NCBI GenBank assembly: GCA_021732945.1
Contig: JAKFWB010000473.1
Coordinates: forward strand, 1 to 12,562
Length of the DNA: 12,562 bases
From: Porphyrobacter sp.
GTDB lineage: Bacteria > Pseudomonadota > Alphaproteobacteria > Sphingomonadales > Sphingomonadaceae
Reading direction: 5' to 3'
Shown here: positions 2,166 to 11,833 of the stretch, in pieces
Position numbering within the stretch: the stretch's first letter is position 1
Layout of the letters: each line of letters begins with the position of its first letter
Program-made: the position numbers and the translations under genes
Notes under the pieces: model-generated
The model's input: the letters and a program-made list of their open reading frames with translations, nothing else
The model's database searches: none
Told to the model about the DNA's origin: nothing

Positions 2166-2579
2166 TCAGGGACGGAAGACGATGTCACAGGTGCGTCCGG
2201 TCATCGCGGCAGCGATCTCCTCGAGCAGCTGCTTCGAGGCTTTGTGGGTCCTGACAAGGCTGCGATCTGGTTGGGGTTGAAGGTGGGGCCCGGGCCACAG
2301 AAAGACGTTCGCTTCCTCGAAAACGACATCGGCTGTGTGCTCGAGCCCCAGCGCTGCGCGTTCGGCGGGGGATATTGCGACCCGTGCCCCGGTGGCGCCC
2401 GAGAGGATGGGCAGCACGGCCACCAGCTGAAGCGCCTCGATCGCACGGACATTCCATATGAGGCACGGACGAACGTCCAGCTGGCCGTTGGCTTTGCGCT
2501 CGGCGTTCCGCTGTTCAAGATAGCGGAAGTCGATGATTGCGCCTGTTTCAGGGCGGTTTAATGGATCATTCTGCTGCAT
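2166..2579 (-). CDS. PemK/MazF-like toxin of a type II toxin-antitoxin pair
   Basis: The 137-residue protein follows the PemK/MazF layout. A GAIIDFRYLEQRNAE start (residues 13-27) is followed by RPCLIWN (37-43), a VAVLPILS strand (53-60), and AALGLEHTADVVFEEANVF with WPGP (75-98). As I recall, the last block, with its WPGP-D/H-L ending, resembles the alphaproteobacterial YifN/PemK branch rather than classical MazF. Such proteins are usually ribosome-dependent or free mRNA endonucleases, though catalytic activity is inferred only from the family. It overlaps the antitoxin gene upstream by 14 nt, the typical arrangement of antitoxin first and toxin second with coupled translation. A GGAAAGG ribosome site lies inside the antitoxin gene. 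An alternative is a toxin-fold protein that has lost activity. Confidence 0.68.
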   Translation of the reverse strand: MQQNDPLNRPETGAIIDFRYLEQRNAERKANGQLDVRPCLIWNVRAIEALQLVAVLPILSGATGARVAISPAERAALGLEHTADVVFEEANVFLWPGPHLQPQPDRSLVRTHKASKQLLEEIAAAMTGRTCDIVFRP

Positions 2580-2841
2580 CGTCGTACCTTTCCGGCGAAT
2601 GCGGGTGCGCTCCGGGTCGGCCCGCGCTCAGCTCCTTGACGATGTCTGCGAGAGCGCTCGATTGCATGGCGCGGCCGACAAGCGCCCGCAGCGAAGCATA
2701 TTCATCGGCCGGAACCAGGACGGCCAATACTGCGCCCTTCTCCTCGATCCCGATGGCGCGCGTAGCGGCTGCCTTGAGGGTTTCATCAAGGTTCTTGTGC
2801 AAGGTCGCACTGGGTATCGTTTCGGTGAAGGGGCTTTCCAT
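2566..2841 (-). CDS. Phd/YefM-like antitoxin
   Basis: The 91-residue protein has the Phd/YefM layout. IPSATLHKNLDETLKAA (residues 9-25) is the DNA-binding N-terminal fold, followed by a short strand AIGIEEKGAVLAVLVPADEYASL (29-51) in which VLVPADEYASL matches the family consensus. The C-terminus (from about residue 65) is flexible and proline/histidine rich, fitting the toxin-binding tail. It should bind the promoter and neutralise the PemK-like protein encoded directly downstream. Start choice: GGAG sits about 10 nt upstream of the ATG. The 118-nt upstream gap holds a candidate promoter and an inverted repeat, consistent with autoregulation. Pairing a Phd-type antitoxin with a PemK-like toxin is a mixed combination, although such swaps are known among type II modules. 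Confidence 0.75.
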   Translation of the reverse strand: MESPFTETIPSATLHKNLDETLKAAATRAIGIEEKGAVLAVLVPADEYASLRALVGRAMQSSALADIVKELSAGRPGAHPHSPERYDDAAE

Positions 2842-3347: not shown

Positions 3348-3803
3348 TCAGCTGGCGAATTCGGCGGTGGATTCGCCGAGACCGTCGGACGTGCTGGCGC
3401 CGCCGGTATCGCCGGGAGCGTCGCCCATGTCGAAGGCGGGCATGTCGTCCTGCTTGGCGGCGAGCTGCGAGGTGACATCGCGGCGGCGCGTCGGGCGCGA
3501 CCAGACGATGTTGTAGCTGCCATCGTCCTGGCTGAAGGCCGAGATCTGCAGCGGCGCGGTCATCGACGGATCGTCGATCTTGCCGTTGAGGAAGGCCTCG
3601 CCGGTGTTGTTCGAGAAGAGCTCGAACAGCGCGCCGACCTGGATCCACTTGCGCGCCGGGGTCAGCGCATGGATTTCGAAGCGCGGGGCCTTGGGATTGT
3701 TGCTGGCGACCGGCTTCAGCGCGATCGTCATCGCGACTGCCATGGTGTCAACGCGGCCGATGAAAACGCCGCTGTCGTTCTGCTTGATGGAACCGATGTT
3801 CAT
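3348..3803 (-). CDS. DUF736 family protein
   Basis: This 151-residue protein has the DUF736 pattern: MNIGSIKQNDSGVFIGRVDT at the start, MTIALKPVASNN..APRFEIHA (25-46), an IQVGALFE..FLNGKIDDPSMTAPL block (54-85), and DGSYNIVWSRP (94-104). DUF736 proteins are small proteins typical of alphaproteobacterial plasmids and integrative elements. Their biochemical role is not established. Residues from about 105 on form a low-complexity acidic tail (DMPAFDMGDAPGDTGGAST) that extends beyond the usual domain. The ATG is preceded by AGGAG with a 7-nt gap. The gene has a strong terminator of its own and a hairpin-filled leader, so it looks like a single-gene unit. Like ssb, it is a marker of mobile DNA. 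Confidence 0.88.
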   Translation of the reverse strand: MNIGSIKQNDSGVFIGRVDTMAVAMTIALKPVASNNPKAPRFEIHALTPARKWIQVGALFELFSNNTGEAFLNGKIDDPSMTAPLQISAFSQDDGSYNIVWSRPTRRRDVTSQLAAKQDDMPAFDMGDAPGDTGGASTSDGLGESTAEFAS

Positions 3804-3875
3804 GATGCTTCTCCTGAGATTGCGTCTCGGACACCCTGTCCTCGACACCCTTCTCAATCCCCCTCCTCTCCTCGG

Positions 3876-3945
3876 CCCGCCTGCGGGACGAGCAGGCGCG
3901 CGTGCCGCGCGCCCTCCATTGGCCACGCTTCTGGCGTGCCAATGG
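3876..3945 (-). repeat. Three consecutive hairpins in the DUF736 leader
   Basis: Three inverted repeats follow one another. They are a 5-bp stem at 3876-3880/3883-3887, a perfect 8-bp GC-only stem at 3895-3902/3906-3913 (loop TGC), and an 8-bp stem at 3916-3923/3938-3945 whose interior adds four more pairs around a one-base bulge. They lie 70-140 nt upstream of the DUF736 start codon. They could fold in the leader RNA or in single-stranded plasmid DNA. Confidence 0.6.
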
Positions 3946-4137
3946 GATCGCTTCAGGGAGCTCTGGGGGCTTTGGTTATGCGGAGCGGAGGTCGGGCATT
4001 CGGGAAAGCAAGCTCAGAAGCCGTGCCTGTTTTCATTGCGCCGACCGAATAGTTGCCGGAGGGCCGATGAATTCGCGAAAGGCTAAAATGACGCGCCGGT
4101 CCATGCGCCGCAGATGGGTAGGAAAAAAATTCCCGGA

Positions 4138-4166
4138 TTGACCCCACTGGGGGTGCGTGGGATTTT
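4138..4166 (+). promoter_or_regulatory. Weak candidate promoter for the plus-strand gene pair
   Basis: TTGACC (4138-4143) is followed after 17 nt by GATTTT (4161-4166), about 34 nt before the ATG at 4200. The -35 box is good but the -10 box is poor (three of six matches). Offered as a possibility only. Confidence 0.25.
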
Positions 4167-4199
4167 CTCCGTCCTGGTTCCAATTGCCGGTTGCTCGAT

Positions 4200-4784
4200 A
4201 TGGTCTCAGTCGCAATCTATCCCCCGCCTCGCGTCGTCGCGCTTCGTGCGCGCAGGCTTGAGCACCGCGAACGTCGTGTCGCGATTCGGGCTGCGATCGA
4301 GGAAGAGGGAGAAGCTCTGGCAACTCAGGAGGAAGCCGAGGAAAACGCCATCCATTGGGAAGAGCTTCGCCACGAGAGCGAAGCGCTGCGGTTGCAGCAG
4401 GCTCTTGTTGAGGTGCGTGCGCGCCGGGCGTGGACGCCGGGCTTTCTGATCCCTCCGCTCCTAGCCGGGGTGCTGGCGATTGTCGGTGTTGGCAGCCTTG
4501 TGTACTTTTCGAGCAATCCGGTCGGCGCGTACTACGGGTCAATGCTGGGGTTGGCGATACCGGCGGTGCTTTTGATGGCGATCTGTATCGCTGGGCCCTG
4601 GGTCGTCCTGTCGCTGGAGCCCTGGATGGGACGAAACCGTGACGAGGAAGTTACGTTTCGGCAGATCGAGCAGCTTGAAGACCGAAAGCAGGCGCTTGCG
4701 TCAGGCGAGTTTTGGTTCGACTGGTACGAACACCCTGATGGCGAGGAATATTGCAGGATCAACTATGATATGAGCACTGGCTGA
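4200..4784 (+). CDS. Coiled-coil protein with two membrane segments, unknown
   Basis: I do not recognise this 194-residue protein. Residues 11-77 are a charged helix rich in Arg, Glu and Ala (RARRLEHRERR, EEEGEALATQEEAEENA), probably a coiled coil. Two hydrophobic stretches follow, about 82-103 and 115-138, with a short loop between them. The C-terminus (140-194) is polar, with FWFDWYEHPDGEEYC near 171-185. With both ends probably cytoplasmic, this is an inner-membrane hairpin protein. I chose the ATG at 4200; a TTG three codons earlier is also in frame, and neither has a strong ribosome site. It lies 93 nt upstream of the sigma-region-4 membrane gene on the same strand. Both share the plan of a charged helix plus a membrane pair, which suggests they work together. 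Confidence 0.72.
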   Translation: MVSVAIYPPPRVVALRARRLEHRERRVAIRAAIEEEGEALATQEEAEENAIHWEELRHESEALRLQQALVEVRARRAWTPGFLIPPLLAGVLAIVGVGSLVYFSSNPVGAYYGSMLGLAIPAVLLMAICIAGPWVVLSLEPWMGRNRDEEVTFRQIEQLEDRKQALASGEFWFDWYEHPDGEEYCRINYDMSTG

Positions 4785-4877: not shown

Positions 4878-5738
4878 ATGGGGCGGCGACGATCGGTGGT
4901 GGATGACGACCACTACGTAGTGGAGCGCCTGGTACATGGGATCGAGGCGCTTTCAGAACTCGAAGATGCCACCGTCGAAATGGATGAGAGCTTCGCTGAT
5001 CGCGACCGGCTCAACGCTGCACTTTTGTCACTGCCCCCACGTCTGGAGCGTGCGATCCGCCTGCGATATGGATTATGCCGCGCCGGTGGCGACGGCCCCA
5101 TGACCTTCGCCGAGATCGGCGAAGTCTTCGGCGTGACGCACAACCGTGCTATGCAGATGGTGACGAAGGCGCAGCGCAAGATGCGCTGGTTCCTTCATGC
5201 GAGCGGCCGTGTAACGCCCGAGGAGTGGGACGATCTGAATAGACGGCGCGCGATCTATGAAGCCCAGGAAAGGGTCGCGCGCGAAAGGTATGCGGCGTGG
5301 CAGGATGCACGCGCGGCGCAGGAGCGGGCGGAGCGTGAACGCAGGGCTGGCGAAATCGAGCAGGCTATGGCGGCGCAGTGTCGGCGGAATGCGGAAGAGT
5401 TGGCGCGCAGTCAGGAAAGGGGATCTGGGCGATTGCCTGTTATTGAGGGGCTTTCCGGTTCTGATCGTCGCGTGGTTCGGTCAGACCATTCATTCGACGG
5501 CGTCTCTGACGATCGCCTATCGCCTCGTTGGACCGTTAGCGTGGTCAAAAAGATCACTGAGATGATCGATCTTCGGTTTCCGCTTCTGATGCTCTGGGTG
5601 CCTGCTGTTGCAGGCTTGCTGCTGGTTTTGACATCTGAGGCTGCCGTCGTGTTTCTTGTGACATTTGTCGCCGTTATCTGGCTGCCCTGGGAGCTCACGG
5701 TCTTTCAGCGCTTCGGGATGGCCCATCATCCCGTTTAG
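4878..5738 (+). CDS. Membrane-anchored sigma-70 region-4-like DNA-binding protein
   Basis: This 286-residue protein combines parts not usually found together. Residues 45-106 match sigma-70 region 4: LNAALLSLPPRLERAIRLRYGL, then MTFAEIGEVFGVTHNRAMQM and KAQRKMRWF, where the helix-turn-helix (about 75-103) aligns with the EIGE..GVTRERIRQI..KALRKLR consensus. There is no region 2, so it cannot act as an ordinary sigma factor. Residues 115-185 are a long charged helix, probably a coiled coil. A polar linker (186-225) leads to two hydrophobic segments (about 234-251 and 253-272). The DNA-binding end would sit in the cytoplasm, tethered to the inner membrane. It may regulate transcription from the membrane, perhaps with the upstream membrane protein. 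The ribosome site (AAGAG) is weak. It ends 20 nt from the convergent gene at 5759. Confidence 0.82.
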   Translation: MGRRRSVVDDDHYVVERLVHGIEALSELEDATVEMDESFADRDRLNAALLSLPPRLERAIRLRYGLCRAGGDGPMTFAEIGEVFGVTHNRAMQMVTKAQRKMRWFLHASGRVTPEEWDDLNRRRAIYEAQERVARERYAAWQDARAAQERAERERRAGEIEQAMAAQCRRNAEELARSQERGSGRLPVIEGLSGSDRRVVRSDHSFDGVSDDRLSPRWTVSVVKKITEMIDLRFPLLMLWVPAVAGLLLVLTSEAAVVFLVTFVAVIWLPWELTVFQRFGMAHHPV

Positions 5739-6401: not shown

Positions 6402-6686
6402 CTAGCTTCCGTTGCGCGTGAGGTGTGCGCGGATCGCTGCTTGCTGGCGGTCCAGTTTGGCTGTGAGCGCCCCGATGTCGTTGCGGTTTCGGTACCGCAG
6501 CTCGGCCAGAGCGGCCTGGTAGGCTGCCTCGTCGCTTTTGCGCCATGCGCTGTCACCGCGATGCACGGCGGGTGAGTTGACGGCGGCGTTGGCGTCATGA
6601 CGCAGGCGCCGGTCAAGTTCCCGGAGGCGGGCATCGGTCGCATCGCGTGCAGCGATCATGCGGGCATATTCTGGCGATGAGCTCAT
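6402..6686 (-). CDS. Small helical protein, unknown
   Basis: This 94-residue protein is almost wholly helical and charged: ARDATDARLRELDRRLRHDANA (residues 13-34) and DEAAYQAALAELRYRNRNDIGALTAKLDRQQAAIRAHL (52-89), separated by a small polar loop. It may form a helical hairpin. No known family is recognised. Its ATG overlaps the stop of the PP-loop gene by 4 nt (ATGA, 6683-6686), so translation is probably coupled to that gene, and a functional link to it is reasonable. It ends in TAG. Downstream is a 139-nt gap with no clear terminator. Confidence 0.75.
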   Translation of the reverse strand: MSSSPEYARMIAARDATDARLRELDRRLRHDANAAVNSPAVHRGDSAWRKSDEAAYQAALAELRYRNRNDIGALTAKLDRQQAAIRAHLTRNGS

Positions 6687-7846
6687 GGCCGTGCCTCATG
6701 CGGCCGTGGCTGCCCGCCGGTTGCGGGAGCGCGGCGGGCGACGAGTTCGGCAAACCGGGCTTTCACGGCAGACCCGTCGGGATACCGGTCGAAAAGCTCG
6801 TGCCTGCGCAGGATCGGCGCTCGGGCTGCTGCGATGAGAGAGGCCTCGCTGGTTGTGGGGATGCGTGGCGGCCAACCGCGCTGGAAACGCAGGTCGGATG
6901 GCATGCCGGATTCGAGCTGTCGTCGGCGCATCGCATCGTGCTTGGCGCGCTCGATATCGCTGGCGAGGCTTGCCGGCAGAAGGTGCGGTGCGCTGTCGGC
7001 AAGCCAGCGACCGGGTTGGAACGAGAATGTCGAGCGGGCTTCGAGCGCGACCAGATGGATGAAGGCCTCTTGGTTTGAAGGGCAGGATGCGGCGGCTTGC
7101 TGGTCGGCGAGCGATTGCAGGACACAGTATCTGCAGGACAAGCGGCTCGACCCATGGCGCGTGTACGCTTCATGCAGTGGGATGCCGTGCGTCTCGTGAA
7201 AGGCGAACACATCGGCGGTCGACCAGTCGATGACCGGATGCCAGATCATCATCTTGGTGCCTGCGCGATTTCCGTCGGCTGCAAAGCGAGTGTCGCGTTT
7301 CCAGTCCGGCGCTGCGGCTCGCGCGCTGCTTTCGTCACGGCGGATCCCGATGACCTGGATGATGGTCTCGCCTGCCAGCTGCCTGGCGAGATAAGGACCG
7401 ATCACCTGTGCCTTTTGCTCTGAAGTACAGAAGCGGAGCGATGCCGACGACCAGGGTCCTATCAGATTATAGGTCGAGAGCTCTTCGTAGCGTGCCTTAC
7501 CGGCCTCGAAACGCTGGTGCCAACGGTCGAACAGGTCACCGCTCTGGCGGCGGCGGATCGTGAGCGTGATGCTGGCTAGTGCAGCGATGGTTGCTACTGT
7601 TTCTGCGGTGCTGTCCCATTCGGCTCTGCCGAGGTCGGCATGGATGGCAATGCGCCGTTCACGCGGGTGGCCGAGCGCATCGAGCACTGGCATCGCGGCA
7701 AAGAGTGCCGCTGAGGAATCCTTGCCGCCGGACAGGTTGAAGACGAGCCAGGCTCCCGCGCGGATGGCGTGCTCGATCGTGGGCGGCAATGCGATTGTCG
7801 GGTGTATCGGTGAATTGCGGGCCCGCAATGCGTTCAGGGAACTCAT
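6683..7846 (-). CDS. PP-loop enzyme of the PAPS-reductase superfamily
   Basis: This 387-residue protein has the N-type ATP pyrophosphatase loop, NLSGGKDSSAAL (about 37-48), followed by HADLGRAEWDST (70-80), RFCTSEQK (138-145) and a late motif HGSSRLSCRYCVL (231-243). These match the PAPS reductase/DndC-like superfamily, whose members activate a substrate with ATP or handle sulfonucleotides. Cysteines at about 140, 238, 241 and 255 could bind a metal or an iron-sulfur cluster. It is longer than CysH (about 240 residues). No sulfate-assimilation or dnd neighbours are present, so neither role is supported. I chose the ATG at 7846, which overlaps the preceding stop by 4 nt, over a GTG nine codons upstream. 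The substrate is unknown; nucleic-acid or tRNA modification is one possibility. Confidence 0.85.
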   Translation of the reverse strand: MSSLNALRARNSPIHPTIALPPTIEHAIRAGAWLVFNLSGGKDSSAALFAAMPVLDALGHPRERRIAIHADLGRAEWDSTAETVATIAALASITLTIRRRQSGDLFDRWHQRFEAGKARYEELSTYNLIGPWSSASLRFCTSEQKAQVIGPYLARQLAGETIIQVIGIRRDESSARAAAPDWKRDTRFAADGNRAGTKMMIWHPVIDWSTADVFAFHETHGIPLHEAYTRHGSSRLSCRYCVLQSLADQQAAASCPSNQEAFIHLVALEARSTFSFQPGRWLADSAPHLLPASLASDIERAKHDAMRRRQLESGMPSDLRFQRGWPPRIPTTSEASLIAAARAPILRRHELFDRYPDGSAVKARFAELVARRAPATGGQPRPHEARP

Positions 7847-8535
7847 GGCATGCCTGCCGGGCACGCGAGCCACTCGGGTTCGTCAAATGCGATGGGGACA
7901 TCGAAATTGGCAGCTTCGTTTTCGGTGAAGAGCGTCGCTGAAGCGAAATTGCCGAATCCGGCTTCGTTGTTCCAAAACAGCAGGCCATGCTCCGCATCGC
8001 GGGTCGTGAGCACAAGGCGCGTGGTCTCAGCAGGTTGTTTAGTTGAGAGTGCATTGGTGACGATGGCGTGCGTGCTGTGATAGTTGATCGCGTCAGCCTT
8101 GATGATGACCGCGCCGCCGCCGAATTCGTCATTGCGTAGCTTGTCGCAGGTGTAAGCGTATTCGAAACCGATCGGCAGCGCCGATTTCGCACAGGCGAAG
8201 AGTAGGTTCGCCACCTGTTCGATGCCGAATTGGTCGCCCGAGAACGTCACAACCTTGGTGGTGTGATCTTGGCCGTCTTCGATGGTAATCGTGGCATCAA
8301 GGCAGGGGAAGTCTTTGTCCGGGAAGATCGGTATGAAACCGGAGAACGGGTCGTCGCTGATCGGCGGAAAGGCATTGGCAAATTCCGGCCCAAGCGCCTT
8401 GTATGCCTCGCGACGGCCTTCACCTTGAAGATCCTCCTCGATCGCATCGATGGCGGTTTCCGCTGCGGCGATCAGCGCGGCTTCGGACGCTGTGACGGTT
8501 ACCGCGAATGCGGCATGGATGTAATTGTTGGCCAT
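7843..8535 (-). CDS. Unknown 230-residue acidic protein
   Basis: I do not recognise the family. It begins MANNYIHAAFAVTVTASEAALIAAAETAIDAIEED, a helical N-terminus. A proline- and phenylalanine-rich central piece follows (FANAFPPISDDPFSGFIPIFPDKDFPCLD, about 52-80). The second half mixes strands and short helices (TTRLVLTTRDAEHGLLFWNNEAGFGNFAS). The whole is acidic and soluble, with no membrane segment. AAGGA lies 8 nt before the ATG. Its stop overlaps the start of the PP-loop gene in an ATGA, so the two should be made together, and it may be a partner or substrate-binding subunit of that enzyme. That link is inferred only from the gene arrangement. Confidence 0.77.
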   Translation of the reverse strand: MANNYIHAAFAVTVTASEAALIAAAETAIDAIEEDLQGEGRREAYKALGPEFANAFPPISDDPFSGFIPIFPDKDFPCLDATITIEDGQDHTTKVVTFSGDQFGIEQVANLLFACAKSALPIGFEYAYTCDKLRNDEFGGGAVIIKADAINYHSTHAIVTNALSTKQPAETTRLVLTTRDAEHGLLFWNNEAGFGNFASATLFTENEAANFDVPIAFDEPEWLACPAGMP

Positions 8536-10661: not shown

Positions 10662-10928
10662 ATGAAGCGGAGCAGGTTCAGCGAGGAGCAGATCATCGCT
10701 GTGTTGAAGGAGCAGGAAGCGGGGATGGCGACAGCGGACGTGTGCCGCCGTCACGGGATCAGCTCGGCGACCTTTTACAAGTGGAAGTCCAAGTATGGCG
10801 GGCTGGAGGTGTCCGATGCCCGTCGGCTGCGCCAGCTGGAGCAGGAGAACGAGCGGCTGAAGAAGCTGCTGGCGGACTCGATGCTCGACAACGCCATGCT
10901 CAAGGAGATCAGCGCAAAAAAATTCTAG
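10662..10928 (+). CDS. Transposase OrfA of the IS3-family element
   Basis: The 88-residue protein has the IS3 OrfA layout: a helix-turn-helix (residues 1-60, with MKRSRFSEEQIIAVLKEQEAG, ADVCRRHGIS and FYKWKSKYGG) that binds the terminal repeats. A leucine-zipper-like helix follows (RLRQLEQENERLKKLLAD, about 58-75) that lets it pair with itself and with OrfAB. The ATG is preceded by AAGGAG (10648-10653). It ends six bases after a run of seven A that serves as the frameshift site, so OrfA alone is made by ordinary translation and the fused OrfAB by slippage. OrfA usually regulates transposition. Confidence 0.94.
   Translation: MKRSRFSEEQIIAVLKEQEAGMATADVCRRHGISSATFYKWKSKYGGLEVSDARRLRQLEQENERLKKLLADSMLDNAMLKEISAKKF
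10916..10922 (+). promoter_or_regulatory. Programmed -1 frameshift site (A AAA AAA)
   Basis: Seven A bases are set in the OrfA frame as A-AAA-AAA, two codons before the OrfA stop. Slipping back one base enters the OrfB frame at ATT (10922). This is the classic arrangement for IS3-family elements. Confidence 0.88.
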
Positions 10929-11833
10929 CGCCCGGTGCCAGGCGGCAGGCGGTGGCTCATCTCCAGGAGGTCTTCGAGGTGAGCCAGCGTCGTGCCTGCG
11001 CGGTGCTGGGCGCGGACCGGACCATGGTGCGCTGCGTCAGTCGTCGGCCCGACGATGCGAAGGCGCGCGAGCGCATTAGGGATCTGGCCAGTCAGCGTCG
11101 TCGGTTCGGCTACCGGCGTCTGCATTGGCTGCTATGCCGGGAAGGCTGGGCCATGAACCATAAGAAGTTCCGGCGGCTCTATCGCGAGGAGCGGCTGCAG
11201 GTGCGCCGTCGTGGCGGGCGCAAGCGGGCCTTGGGCACGCGGGCACCGATGACGGTCCCGCATAGCCCCAACCAGCGCTGGAGCCTGGACTTCGTATCGG
11301 ATGCCTTCGCCTGCGGCCGTAGGTTCCGCATCTTTGCCGTGGTCGATGACTACAGCCGGGAGTGCGTGCGCCTGATCGCCGACACGTCGATCTCTGGTGC
11401 GCGGGTAGGGCGTGAACTCGATGCAGCTGTGTTCGAGAGGATGGCGCGGCCGCATACGATCGTCAGCGATAACGGCACCGAACTGACCAGCATGGCGATC
11501 CTGCGCTGGTCGAAGGAGCGCAATGTCGAGTGGCACTACATCGCGCCGGGCAAGCCCTACCAGAACGGGTTCATCGAGAGCTTCAATGCGCGTCTCAGGG
11601 ACGAGTTCTTGAACGAGACGATCTTCACCAGCCTCGCCCATGCCCGTCAGGAGCTGGAAGCCTGGCGGCACGACTACAACCACTTCCGGCCCCACTCGAG
11701 CCTCGGGAACAAAACCCCGGCCGAGATCGGGGCTGGATCGAACGGCAAACCGTATTGGGGGCATGCCCCCAATACGGTTGTTGCCATCACGCCCAGCGAC
11801 GGGCATCAAAACGGCCCAAGGCTCTACTCGTAG
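10922..11833 (+). CDS. Transposase OrfB (catalytic part of OrfAB), DDE type
   Basis: The 303-residue OrfB frame is read after the -1 slip, giving a fused protein of about 390 residues. Its integrase core has D123 (WSLDF), D183 (SDNGTE) and E219 (FIES), with 35 residues between the last two: the DD(35)E spacing of IS3-family enzymes. A HTH_21-like segment (RRRFGYRRLHWLL, 59-71) precedes it. RPHSSLGNKTPAEIG near 256-270 marks the usual end of the domain. About 33 further residues follow, and their DNA contains a perfect 32-bp palindrome. The enzyme cuts and joins the element ends. All catalytic residues are present, so it is probably active. Confidence 0.94.
   Translation: MLAPGARRQAVAHLQEVFEVSQRRACAVLGADRTMVRCVSRRPDDAKARERIRDLASQRRRFGYRRLHWLLCREGWAMNHKKFRRLYREERLQVRRRGGRKRALGTRAPMTVPHSPNQRWSLDFVSDAFACGRRFRIFAVVDDYSRECVRLIADTSISGARVGRELDAAVFERMARPHTIVSDNGTELTSMAILRWSKERNVEWHYIAPGKPYQNGFIESFNARLRDEFLNETIFTSLAHARQELEAWRHDYNHFRPHSSLGNKTPAEIGAGSNGKPYWGHAPNTVVAITPSDGHQNGPRLYS
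11748..11779. repeat. Perfect 32-bp palindrome inside the end of orfB
   Basis: Bases 11748-11763 are exactly the reverse complement of 11764-11779, with no loop and the centre at CATG. It lies after the conserved transposase domain and 80 bases before the right end of the element. In RNA it would form a very stable hairpin, perhaps limiting transcription into or out of the element. Confidence 0.9.

What the first reader, a model, noticed from the sequence alone, without database searches (positions are those of the whole stretch)
4878..5738. A sigma-70 region-4 domain tethered to the membrane
Residues 45-106 match sigma region 4.2 closely, yet the protein lacks region 2 and continues into a coiled coil and two membrane segments. 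Region 4 binds -35 promoter elements and touches RNA polymerase. A membrane-bound version without region 2 could mask promoters, recruit polymerase to the membrane, or act as a sensor. I do not know a described family with this order of parts.
Basis: partly seen in the sequence, partly recalled or inferred. Interest (0 to 1): 0.78.

Follow-up and report, generated by a model that had tools for sequence, protein, structure and literature searches.

The report
Membrane-anchored piece of sigma factor
A mobile genetic element in Erythrobacter-type bacteria carries a protein that joins the promoter-reading end of a sigma factor to a membrane hairpin, probably a membrane-bound gene regulator of an uncommon make, with similar proteins on other conjugative elements.

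Summary
The 286-aa ORF at 4878-5738 is a real gene: 20 of 22 homologues found span both ends, and dN/dS against Erythrobacter colymbi is 0.19. Residues 48-103 match Sigma-70 region 4 (E=1.1e-8), without regions 2 or 3. A charged 69-residue helix, a disordered linker and a predicted membrane hairpin follow. The 'coiled coil' is not supported (no heptad register), nor is a periplasmic sensor (the hydrophobic runs are one residue apart).

The gene lies near ssb and DUF736 genes; the E. colymbi copy shares a contig with a TrwC/MobF relaxase, TrwB-type coupling protein and ArdC. Region-4 sites aligned with sigma-70's -35-reading residues are among the most variable; 34 of 63 sites are invariant.

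Best reading: a membrane-tethered one-component regulator with diversified DNA specificity, an uncommon variant of transmembrane transcription regulators. Binding, targets, sign and signal are untested.

The parts
4878..5738 (+). Gene for the region-4 membrane protein (286 aa)
5001..5189 (+). Sigma-70 region 4 domain, residues 42-104
   Evidence: Pfam E=1.1e-8 at residues 48-103; PDB sigma region 4 matches; AF2 helices 42-51, 54-64, 77-84, 88-108
5133..5168 (+). Recognition helix region, residues 86-97; most variable at 88, 89, 92, 96, less so at 86, 90, 97; invariant at 87, 91, 93-95
5217..5423 (+). Long charged alpha-helix, residues 114-182, probable spacer
   Evidence: AF2, 10-residue block pLDDT 70-96; no heptad register
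5424..5525 (+). Variable, mostly disordered linker, residues 183-216
   Evidence: AF2 pLDDT below 50 for 184-219; highest mean entropy of the five segments
5526..5717 (+). Predicted membrane hairpin, residues 217-280
   Evidence: conserved in the family
4191..4784 (+). Upstream same-strand ORF (197 aa): charged N-terminal part and a 63-residue charge-free stretch; possible partner, kept next to the region-4 gene in E. colymbi with the same 93-nt gap
   Evidence: dN/dS 0.63, so coding constraint is weaker
3804..4190 (.). Intergenic region upstream of the pair (left edge set by the DUF736 start seen in E. colymbi); 93-100% identical to E. colymbi per 60-nt bin; possible promoter/operator site (inferred)
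   Evidence: no consensus sigma-70 promoter found

Best explanation
The protein is a membrane-anchored one-component DNA-binding regulator of a conjugative element. Its isolated sigma region 4 faces the cytoplasm, reads a -35-like sequence whose specificity differs between copies of the element, and probably still touches RNA polymerase through the region-4 core. A long charged helix and a flexible linker hold it away from a two-helix hairpin in the inner membrane. Because it lacks region 2 it cannot open promoters itself, so it should act on promoters used by host holoenzyme, by occluding or assisting them. Input would come through the membrane, a partner membrane protein (perhaps the gene just upstream) or proteolysis. 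Shown by computation: domain content, purifying selection, mobile-element setting, variability at the DNA-facing sites. Inferred: topology, DNA binding, polymerase contact, targets, sign and signal.
For: Region 4 above the Pfam cut-off and no other sigma region. Hairpin predicted and conserved. Positions 88, 89, 92 (sigma-70 R584, E585, R588; the numbering and their role are recalled, the correspondence aligned by eye, the sites chosen after I had seen the alignment) have mean entropy 1.53 against 0.25 for other region-4 sites; 5 of 20000 random triples reach it. All 11 residues 55-65 are invariant in 22 rows. Purifying selection in all segments. Three more sets of region-4-only proteins with hydrophobic tails; their located members begin 8, 391 and 557 nt after TrwC/MobF relaxase genes. 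CadC, a membrane-bound regulator, finds its DNA target (PMC7888679, abstract).
Against: No operator, promoter or target gene was identified; no consensus promoter near the pair. Variable recognition-helix sites could also mean relaxed constraint, the rows are related, and position 88 is still R in 9 of 22 rows. The region-4 and helix part has higher dS (0.52, 0.49) than the rest (0.11-0.27), so part of the variability may come from exchange of a diverged segment. The pCAR3 gene is replaced by other DNA in an otherwise closely similar backbone, so that backbone can do without it. 0 of 60 other sampled relaxase-downstream stretches hold such a gene. Lone region 4 is not always membrane-bound: P0090, P0094 and P0113 have PF04545 without region 2 and no hydrophobic segment.
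Confidence: 0.52

Rival explanations
1. A DNA-membrane tether rather than a transcription regulator: the HTH holds the element's DNA near the inner membrane for conjugation, segregation or replication.
For: Mobile-element setting of the located members of all four sets; the located B, C and D genes lie within 8-557 nt after TrwC/MobF relaxase genes; long spacer helix in the window protein.
Against: The window-type gene is about 16 kb from the relaxase in E. colymbi; the pCAR3 gene is absent from a closely similar backbone; a sigma-type fold is not needed for tethering.
Confidence: 0.16
2. A polymerase decoy: the region 4 core binds the RNAP beta-flap and holds or masks polymerase (anti-sigma-like), with DNA reading lost.
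For: All 11 residues 55-65, in the part that in sigma-70 meets the beta flap (recalled), are invariant, while DNA-facing sites vary.
Against: The invariant core is also what the fold needs; varied DNA-facing sites alone do not show polymerase binding. P0029 and P0030, of set C, keep R and E at the first two -35-reading sites (read by eye).
Confidence: 0.14
3. Half of a split sigma factor that works with a separate region-2 protein.
For: Region 4 alone is present; split sigma factors are known (SigO/RsoA in Bacillus, recalled).
Against: The neighbouring ORF 4191-4784 has no Pfam or NCBIfam match and only PHROG matches of E 0.31 or worse; none of the ten window proteins scanned has region 2. The rest of the element was not scanned for region 2.
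Confidence: 0.06
4. A decaying fusion with no function.
For: P0021 is annotated from inside the recognition helix and P0017 lacks 33 residues of the helix.
Against: dN/dS 0.19; 20 of 22 homologues span both ends.
Confidence: 0.05

Closest known systems
Transmembrane transcription regulators (TTRs; PMC10269533: abstract, outline and passages seen)
   Same: One protein with a DNA-binding domain and membrane segments; forms with two segments are 17% of TTRs in that paper.
   Different: A term search of the held main text found no 'sigma'; its list of DNA-binding domains is in a supplement that I could not read, so region 4 may be in it. Here the DNA-binding part is a lone sigma region 4.
ToxR/CadC family (PMC7888679 abstract; others from the listing)
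   Same: Membrane-anchored DNA-binding activators; ToxR has a co-activator, ToxS.
   Different: ToxR and CadC have a winged helix and a periplasmic sensor (recalled); here the HTH is sigma region 4, and the hairpin has almost no loop.
ECF sigma factors with fused membrane domains (ECF48, ECF52, ECF53, IutY; PMC8999054, passages seen)
   Same: Sigma domain N-terminal, membrane segments C-terminal.
   Different: Those are sigma factors with region 2 (recalled); this has region 4 only and no anti-sigma domain match.
Unannotated pCAR3 ORF after mobF (NC_008308.1, 144560-145543) and similar ORFs in G196, G116, G474
   Same: Only PF04545 above its cut-off (E 6e-8 to 1.8e-15), hydrophobic tail, mobile element.
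   Different: Tails not detectably related to the window protein's (hhalign E 0.15-0.56, shallow alignments); no long charged helix seen by eye; close to the relaxase gene.

Membership tests
Transmembrane transcription regulators | DNA-binding domain | tested here: met
   PF04545 above cut-off; binding itself not tested
Transmembrane transcription regulators | Transmembrane segment(s) | tested here: met
   hydropathy and AF2; prediction only
Transmembrane transcription regulators | Alters transcription from the membrane | not testable with these tools
   needs experiment
Sigma-70 family sigma factor | Region 4 | tested here: met
Sigma-70 family sigma factor | Region 2 | tested here: not met
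   no Pfam match; residues 1-40 are low-confidence in the model
Sigma-70 family sigma factor | Conserved -35-reading residues | tested here: not met
   of 22 rows, position 88 is R in 9, position 89 is never E, position 92 is R in 1; sigma-70 R584, E585, R588 recalled
ECF sigma factor with fused membrane anti-sigma | ECF region 2 plus anti-sigma domain | tested here: not met
   no Pfam match; NCBIfam TIGR02937 38.1 bits, below its cut-off of 42.9
ToxR/CadC family | Winged-helix DNA-binding domain | tested here: not met
   above cut-off only region 4 matches
ToxR/CadC family | Periplasmic sensor domain | tested here: not met
   charge-free runs 234-253 and 255-271 are one residue apart; topology predicted only

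The most novel reading that the evidence does not exclude
A mobile-element class in which a lone sigma region 4 has been joined at least three times to unrelated membrane tails, with diversifying -35-reading residues over a conserved core: membrane-bound promoter selectors that let each conjugative element address its own promoters from the membrane.
Probability: 0.3. Interest if true: 0.72.

Novelty: new variant of a known kind. Interest (0 to 1): 0.5.

Why it matters
Region 4 is known chiefly as a part of sigma factors. Finding it without region 2 on a membrane anchor in several sets of mobile-element proteins suggests it can work as a free-standing regulator. It would give conjugative elements a way to address chosen promoters from the membrane, and a natural set of variants for studying how region 4 reads DNA.

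Tried and rejected
Frameshift or chance fusion: rejected. Classical coiled coil: rejected. General association with relaxases: 0 of 60 sampled relaxase-downstream stretches (L059-L118, picked from the list, where 120 of 397 genomes had a match; G116 and G196 not among the 60) had a region-4 ORF at E up to 1, and tblastn gave only matches of E 0.22 or worse, so the link is occasional. Wide spread: the window-type full-length protein was found only in the own genome among 199 family genomes and 396 order genomes (E up to 1e-9); in 385 class genomes 27 matched a mixed profile at E up to 1e-20: the own genome, and 26 whose matches centre on region 4, 24 of them in open frames over 600 aa, consistent with RpoD; the other two (207 and 365 aa) were not inspected. 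No relative in viral contigs (a pattern scan with two short peptides). Common ancestry of the tails: only B and C match (E=5e-10); A-B, A-C, A-D, B-D and C-D do not, with shallow alignments. Of the plasmid region-4 hits (5, 159 and 3 records) I looked at five beyond pCAR3: four are sigma factors with region 2; the Rhizobium sp. NXC14 protein (748 aa) has region 4 alone. Rfam: no match at gathering thresholds. Papers: listings of searches showed no description of lone region 4 with membrane segments; other searches. A first region-4 profile held wrong-strand training rows and was replaced. The AF2 model of set D was weak (pLDDT 49.5). The crude hydropathy test also fired once inside region 4 of the pCAR3 protein (45-63), so single weak peaks are not reliable.

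Full report
The ORF and its parts. The window ORF 4878-5738 (+) encodes 286 residues. Above its cut-off Pfam finds only Sigma70_r4, residues 48-103, E=1.1e-8 (two weak matches below cut-off, Sigma70_r4_2 E=0.015 and COX7B E=0.04); NCBIfam's sigma70-ECF superfamily model matches below its cut-off; PHROGs gives a sigma-factor family at E=1.3e-7. The closest solved structures are region 4 of RpoD and SigA. AlphaFold2 with 22 sequences gives mean pLDDT 65.4 and pTM 0.31: residues 1-40 below 50, region 4 at about 42-108, one helix 114-182 mostly with high confidence, a disordered stretch 184-219, and two helices 217-250 and 253-280. The last two hold charge-free runs 234-253 and 255-271; 0 of 5000 shuffles reached the 44-residue hydropathy peak and 31 of 5000 the 19-residue peak. 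With one residue between the runs there is little room for a periplasmic sensor. The middle helix lacks a heptad register and is rich in opposite i,i+4 charges, so I read it as a charged single-helix spacer.

It is a real gene. One search returned 22 homologues, 20 of which span both ends (67-96% identical); the other two are shorter pieces. A crude hydropathy test finds at least one membrane segment in 20 of 20 and two in 6 of 20; in the others one peak straddles the hairpin. Against E. colymbi (L002) dN/dS is 0.19, and 0.06-0.20 in the five segments; substitutions by codon position are 19, 17, 62. The upstream ORF 4191-4784 shows weaker constraint (0.63; 14, 10, 17).

Setting. In E. colymbi the same genes lie in the same order around it, on a 61.6-kb contig (G621:C7) with a TrwC/MobF relaxase, a TrwB-type coupling protein, a ribbon-helix-helix protein and ArdC; the region-4 gene is about 16 kb from the relaxase. 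The window contig is only 12.6 kb, but another contig of its own assembly (C24) is 85.6-90.5% identical to the E. colymbi relaxase region; that the two contigs belong to one element is inferred.

Relatives with the same plan. Four sets of region-4-only proteins with hydrophobic tails appear: A (window), B (pCAR3 and G196), C (G116, P0029, P0030) and D (G474, P0025-P0028). The four B-D proteins scanned have only PF04545 above its cut-off. The pCAR3, G116 and G474 genes begin 557, 391 and 8 nt after a TrwC/MobF relaxase gene; the starts of C and D were chosen from homologues, that of B is the first start codon of the listed frame, and two annotated small genes lie in the B gap. The place of P0026-P0030 in their genomes is unknown. 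Profile comparison aligns region 4 in all six pairs of sets, but of the tails only B and C match. In G590:C3, whose relaxase is 97% identical to pCAR3's, a different stretch lies where pCAR3 has the gene. In 60 sampled relaxase-downstream stretches no such gene was found. So the link to relaxases recurs but is not general. As a control, among the 120 best of 517 proteins, P0090, P0094 and P0113 have region 4 without region 2 and no hydrophobic segment, so lone region 4 is not always on a membrane anchor; P0040 (region 3 and 4) has one N-terminal hydrophobic segment.

DNA-facing variability. In the 22-row alignment, the positions aligned with sigma-70 R584, E585 and R588 (numbering and role recalled; sites chosen after seeing the alignment) have mean entropy 1.53 bits against 0.25 for the other region-4 positions; 5 of 20000 random triples reach this. 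Position 88 is R in 9 of 22 rows, 89 is never E, 92 is R in 1. Positions 90 and 96 of the same helix are also variable, as is 46 outside it; 87, 91 and 93-95 are invariant, and 34 of 63 region-4 positions are invariant, among them 55-65. The rows are related and the test treats sites as exchangeable. The region-4 and helix segments also have higher dS than the rest, so exchange of a diverged segment may contribute. Set C is mixed: P0029 and P0030 keep R and E at the first two sites, the G116 protein does not (read by eye).

Mechanism. I favour a membrane-tethered regulator that reads element-specific -35-like sites and may contact polymerase; without region 2 it should not act as a sigma factor alone. 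DNA tethering for conjugation or segregation, and a polymerase decoy, are the main rivals. None was tested.

Known kinds. Transmembrane transcription regulators are widespread (PMC10269533; abstract, outline and passages seen), and ECF sigma factors with C-terminal membrane parts exist (PMC8999054; passages seen). A term search of PMC11541004, on plasmid leading regions, found neither sigma nor DUF736. The listings of searches showed no paper on a lone region 4 with a membrane anchor; one search listed 12 of 204 papers, and the library lacks most subscription journals. I therefore call this a new variant of a known kind.

Noticed in passing
window 4191-4784: Upstream ORF with a 63-residue charge-free stretch; one weak plasmid relative (Sphingobium yanoikuyae, 30% over about half its length, near recombinase and ssb genes).
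   Followed up: partly
window 3541-4500: Block 92-100% identical per 60-nt bin to E. colymbi, while much of the sequence on either side is 70-90%: recent exchange or constraint.
   Followed up: no
window 6683-7873: PAPS-reductase-family protein with partial resemblance to DndC, well below that model's cut-off.
   Followed up: no
window 2166-2841: Two small adjacent ORFs; the first weakly resembles PemK/MazF-type toxins (E=0.02, below cut-off).
   Followed up: no
window 10662-11833: Two overlapping ORFs with transposase HTH and integrase-core (rve) domains, an insertion-sequence transposase pair.
   Followed up: partly
L022 7860-8846 (pCAR3, NC_008308.1): ORF without a listed gene, for a region-4 protein with a hydrophobic tail, after mobF; other DNA lies there in a closely similar backbone in G590.
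   Followed up: partly
L136 2671-4917 (Rhizobium sp. NXC14 plasmid pRspNXC14a): 748-aa protein with region 4 as its only Pfam match and one hydrophobic segment at 616-634: perhaps another lone region 4 near a membrane.
   Followed up: partly
G621:C7 45825-50656: Three adjacent long ORFs, one a Phage_integrase-family recombinase; possibly a recombinase trio.
   Followed up: no
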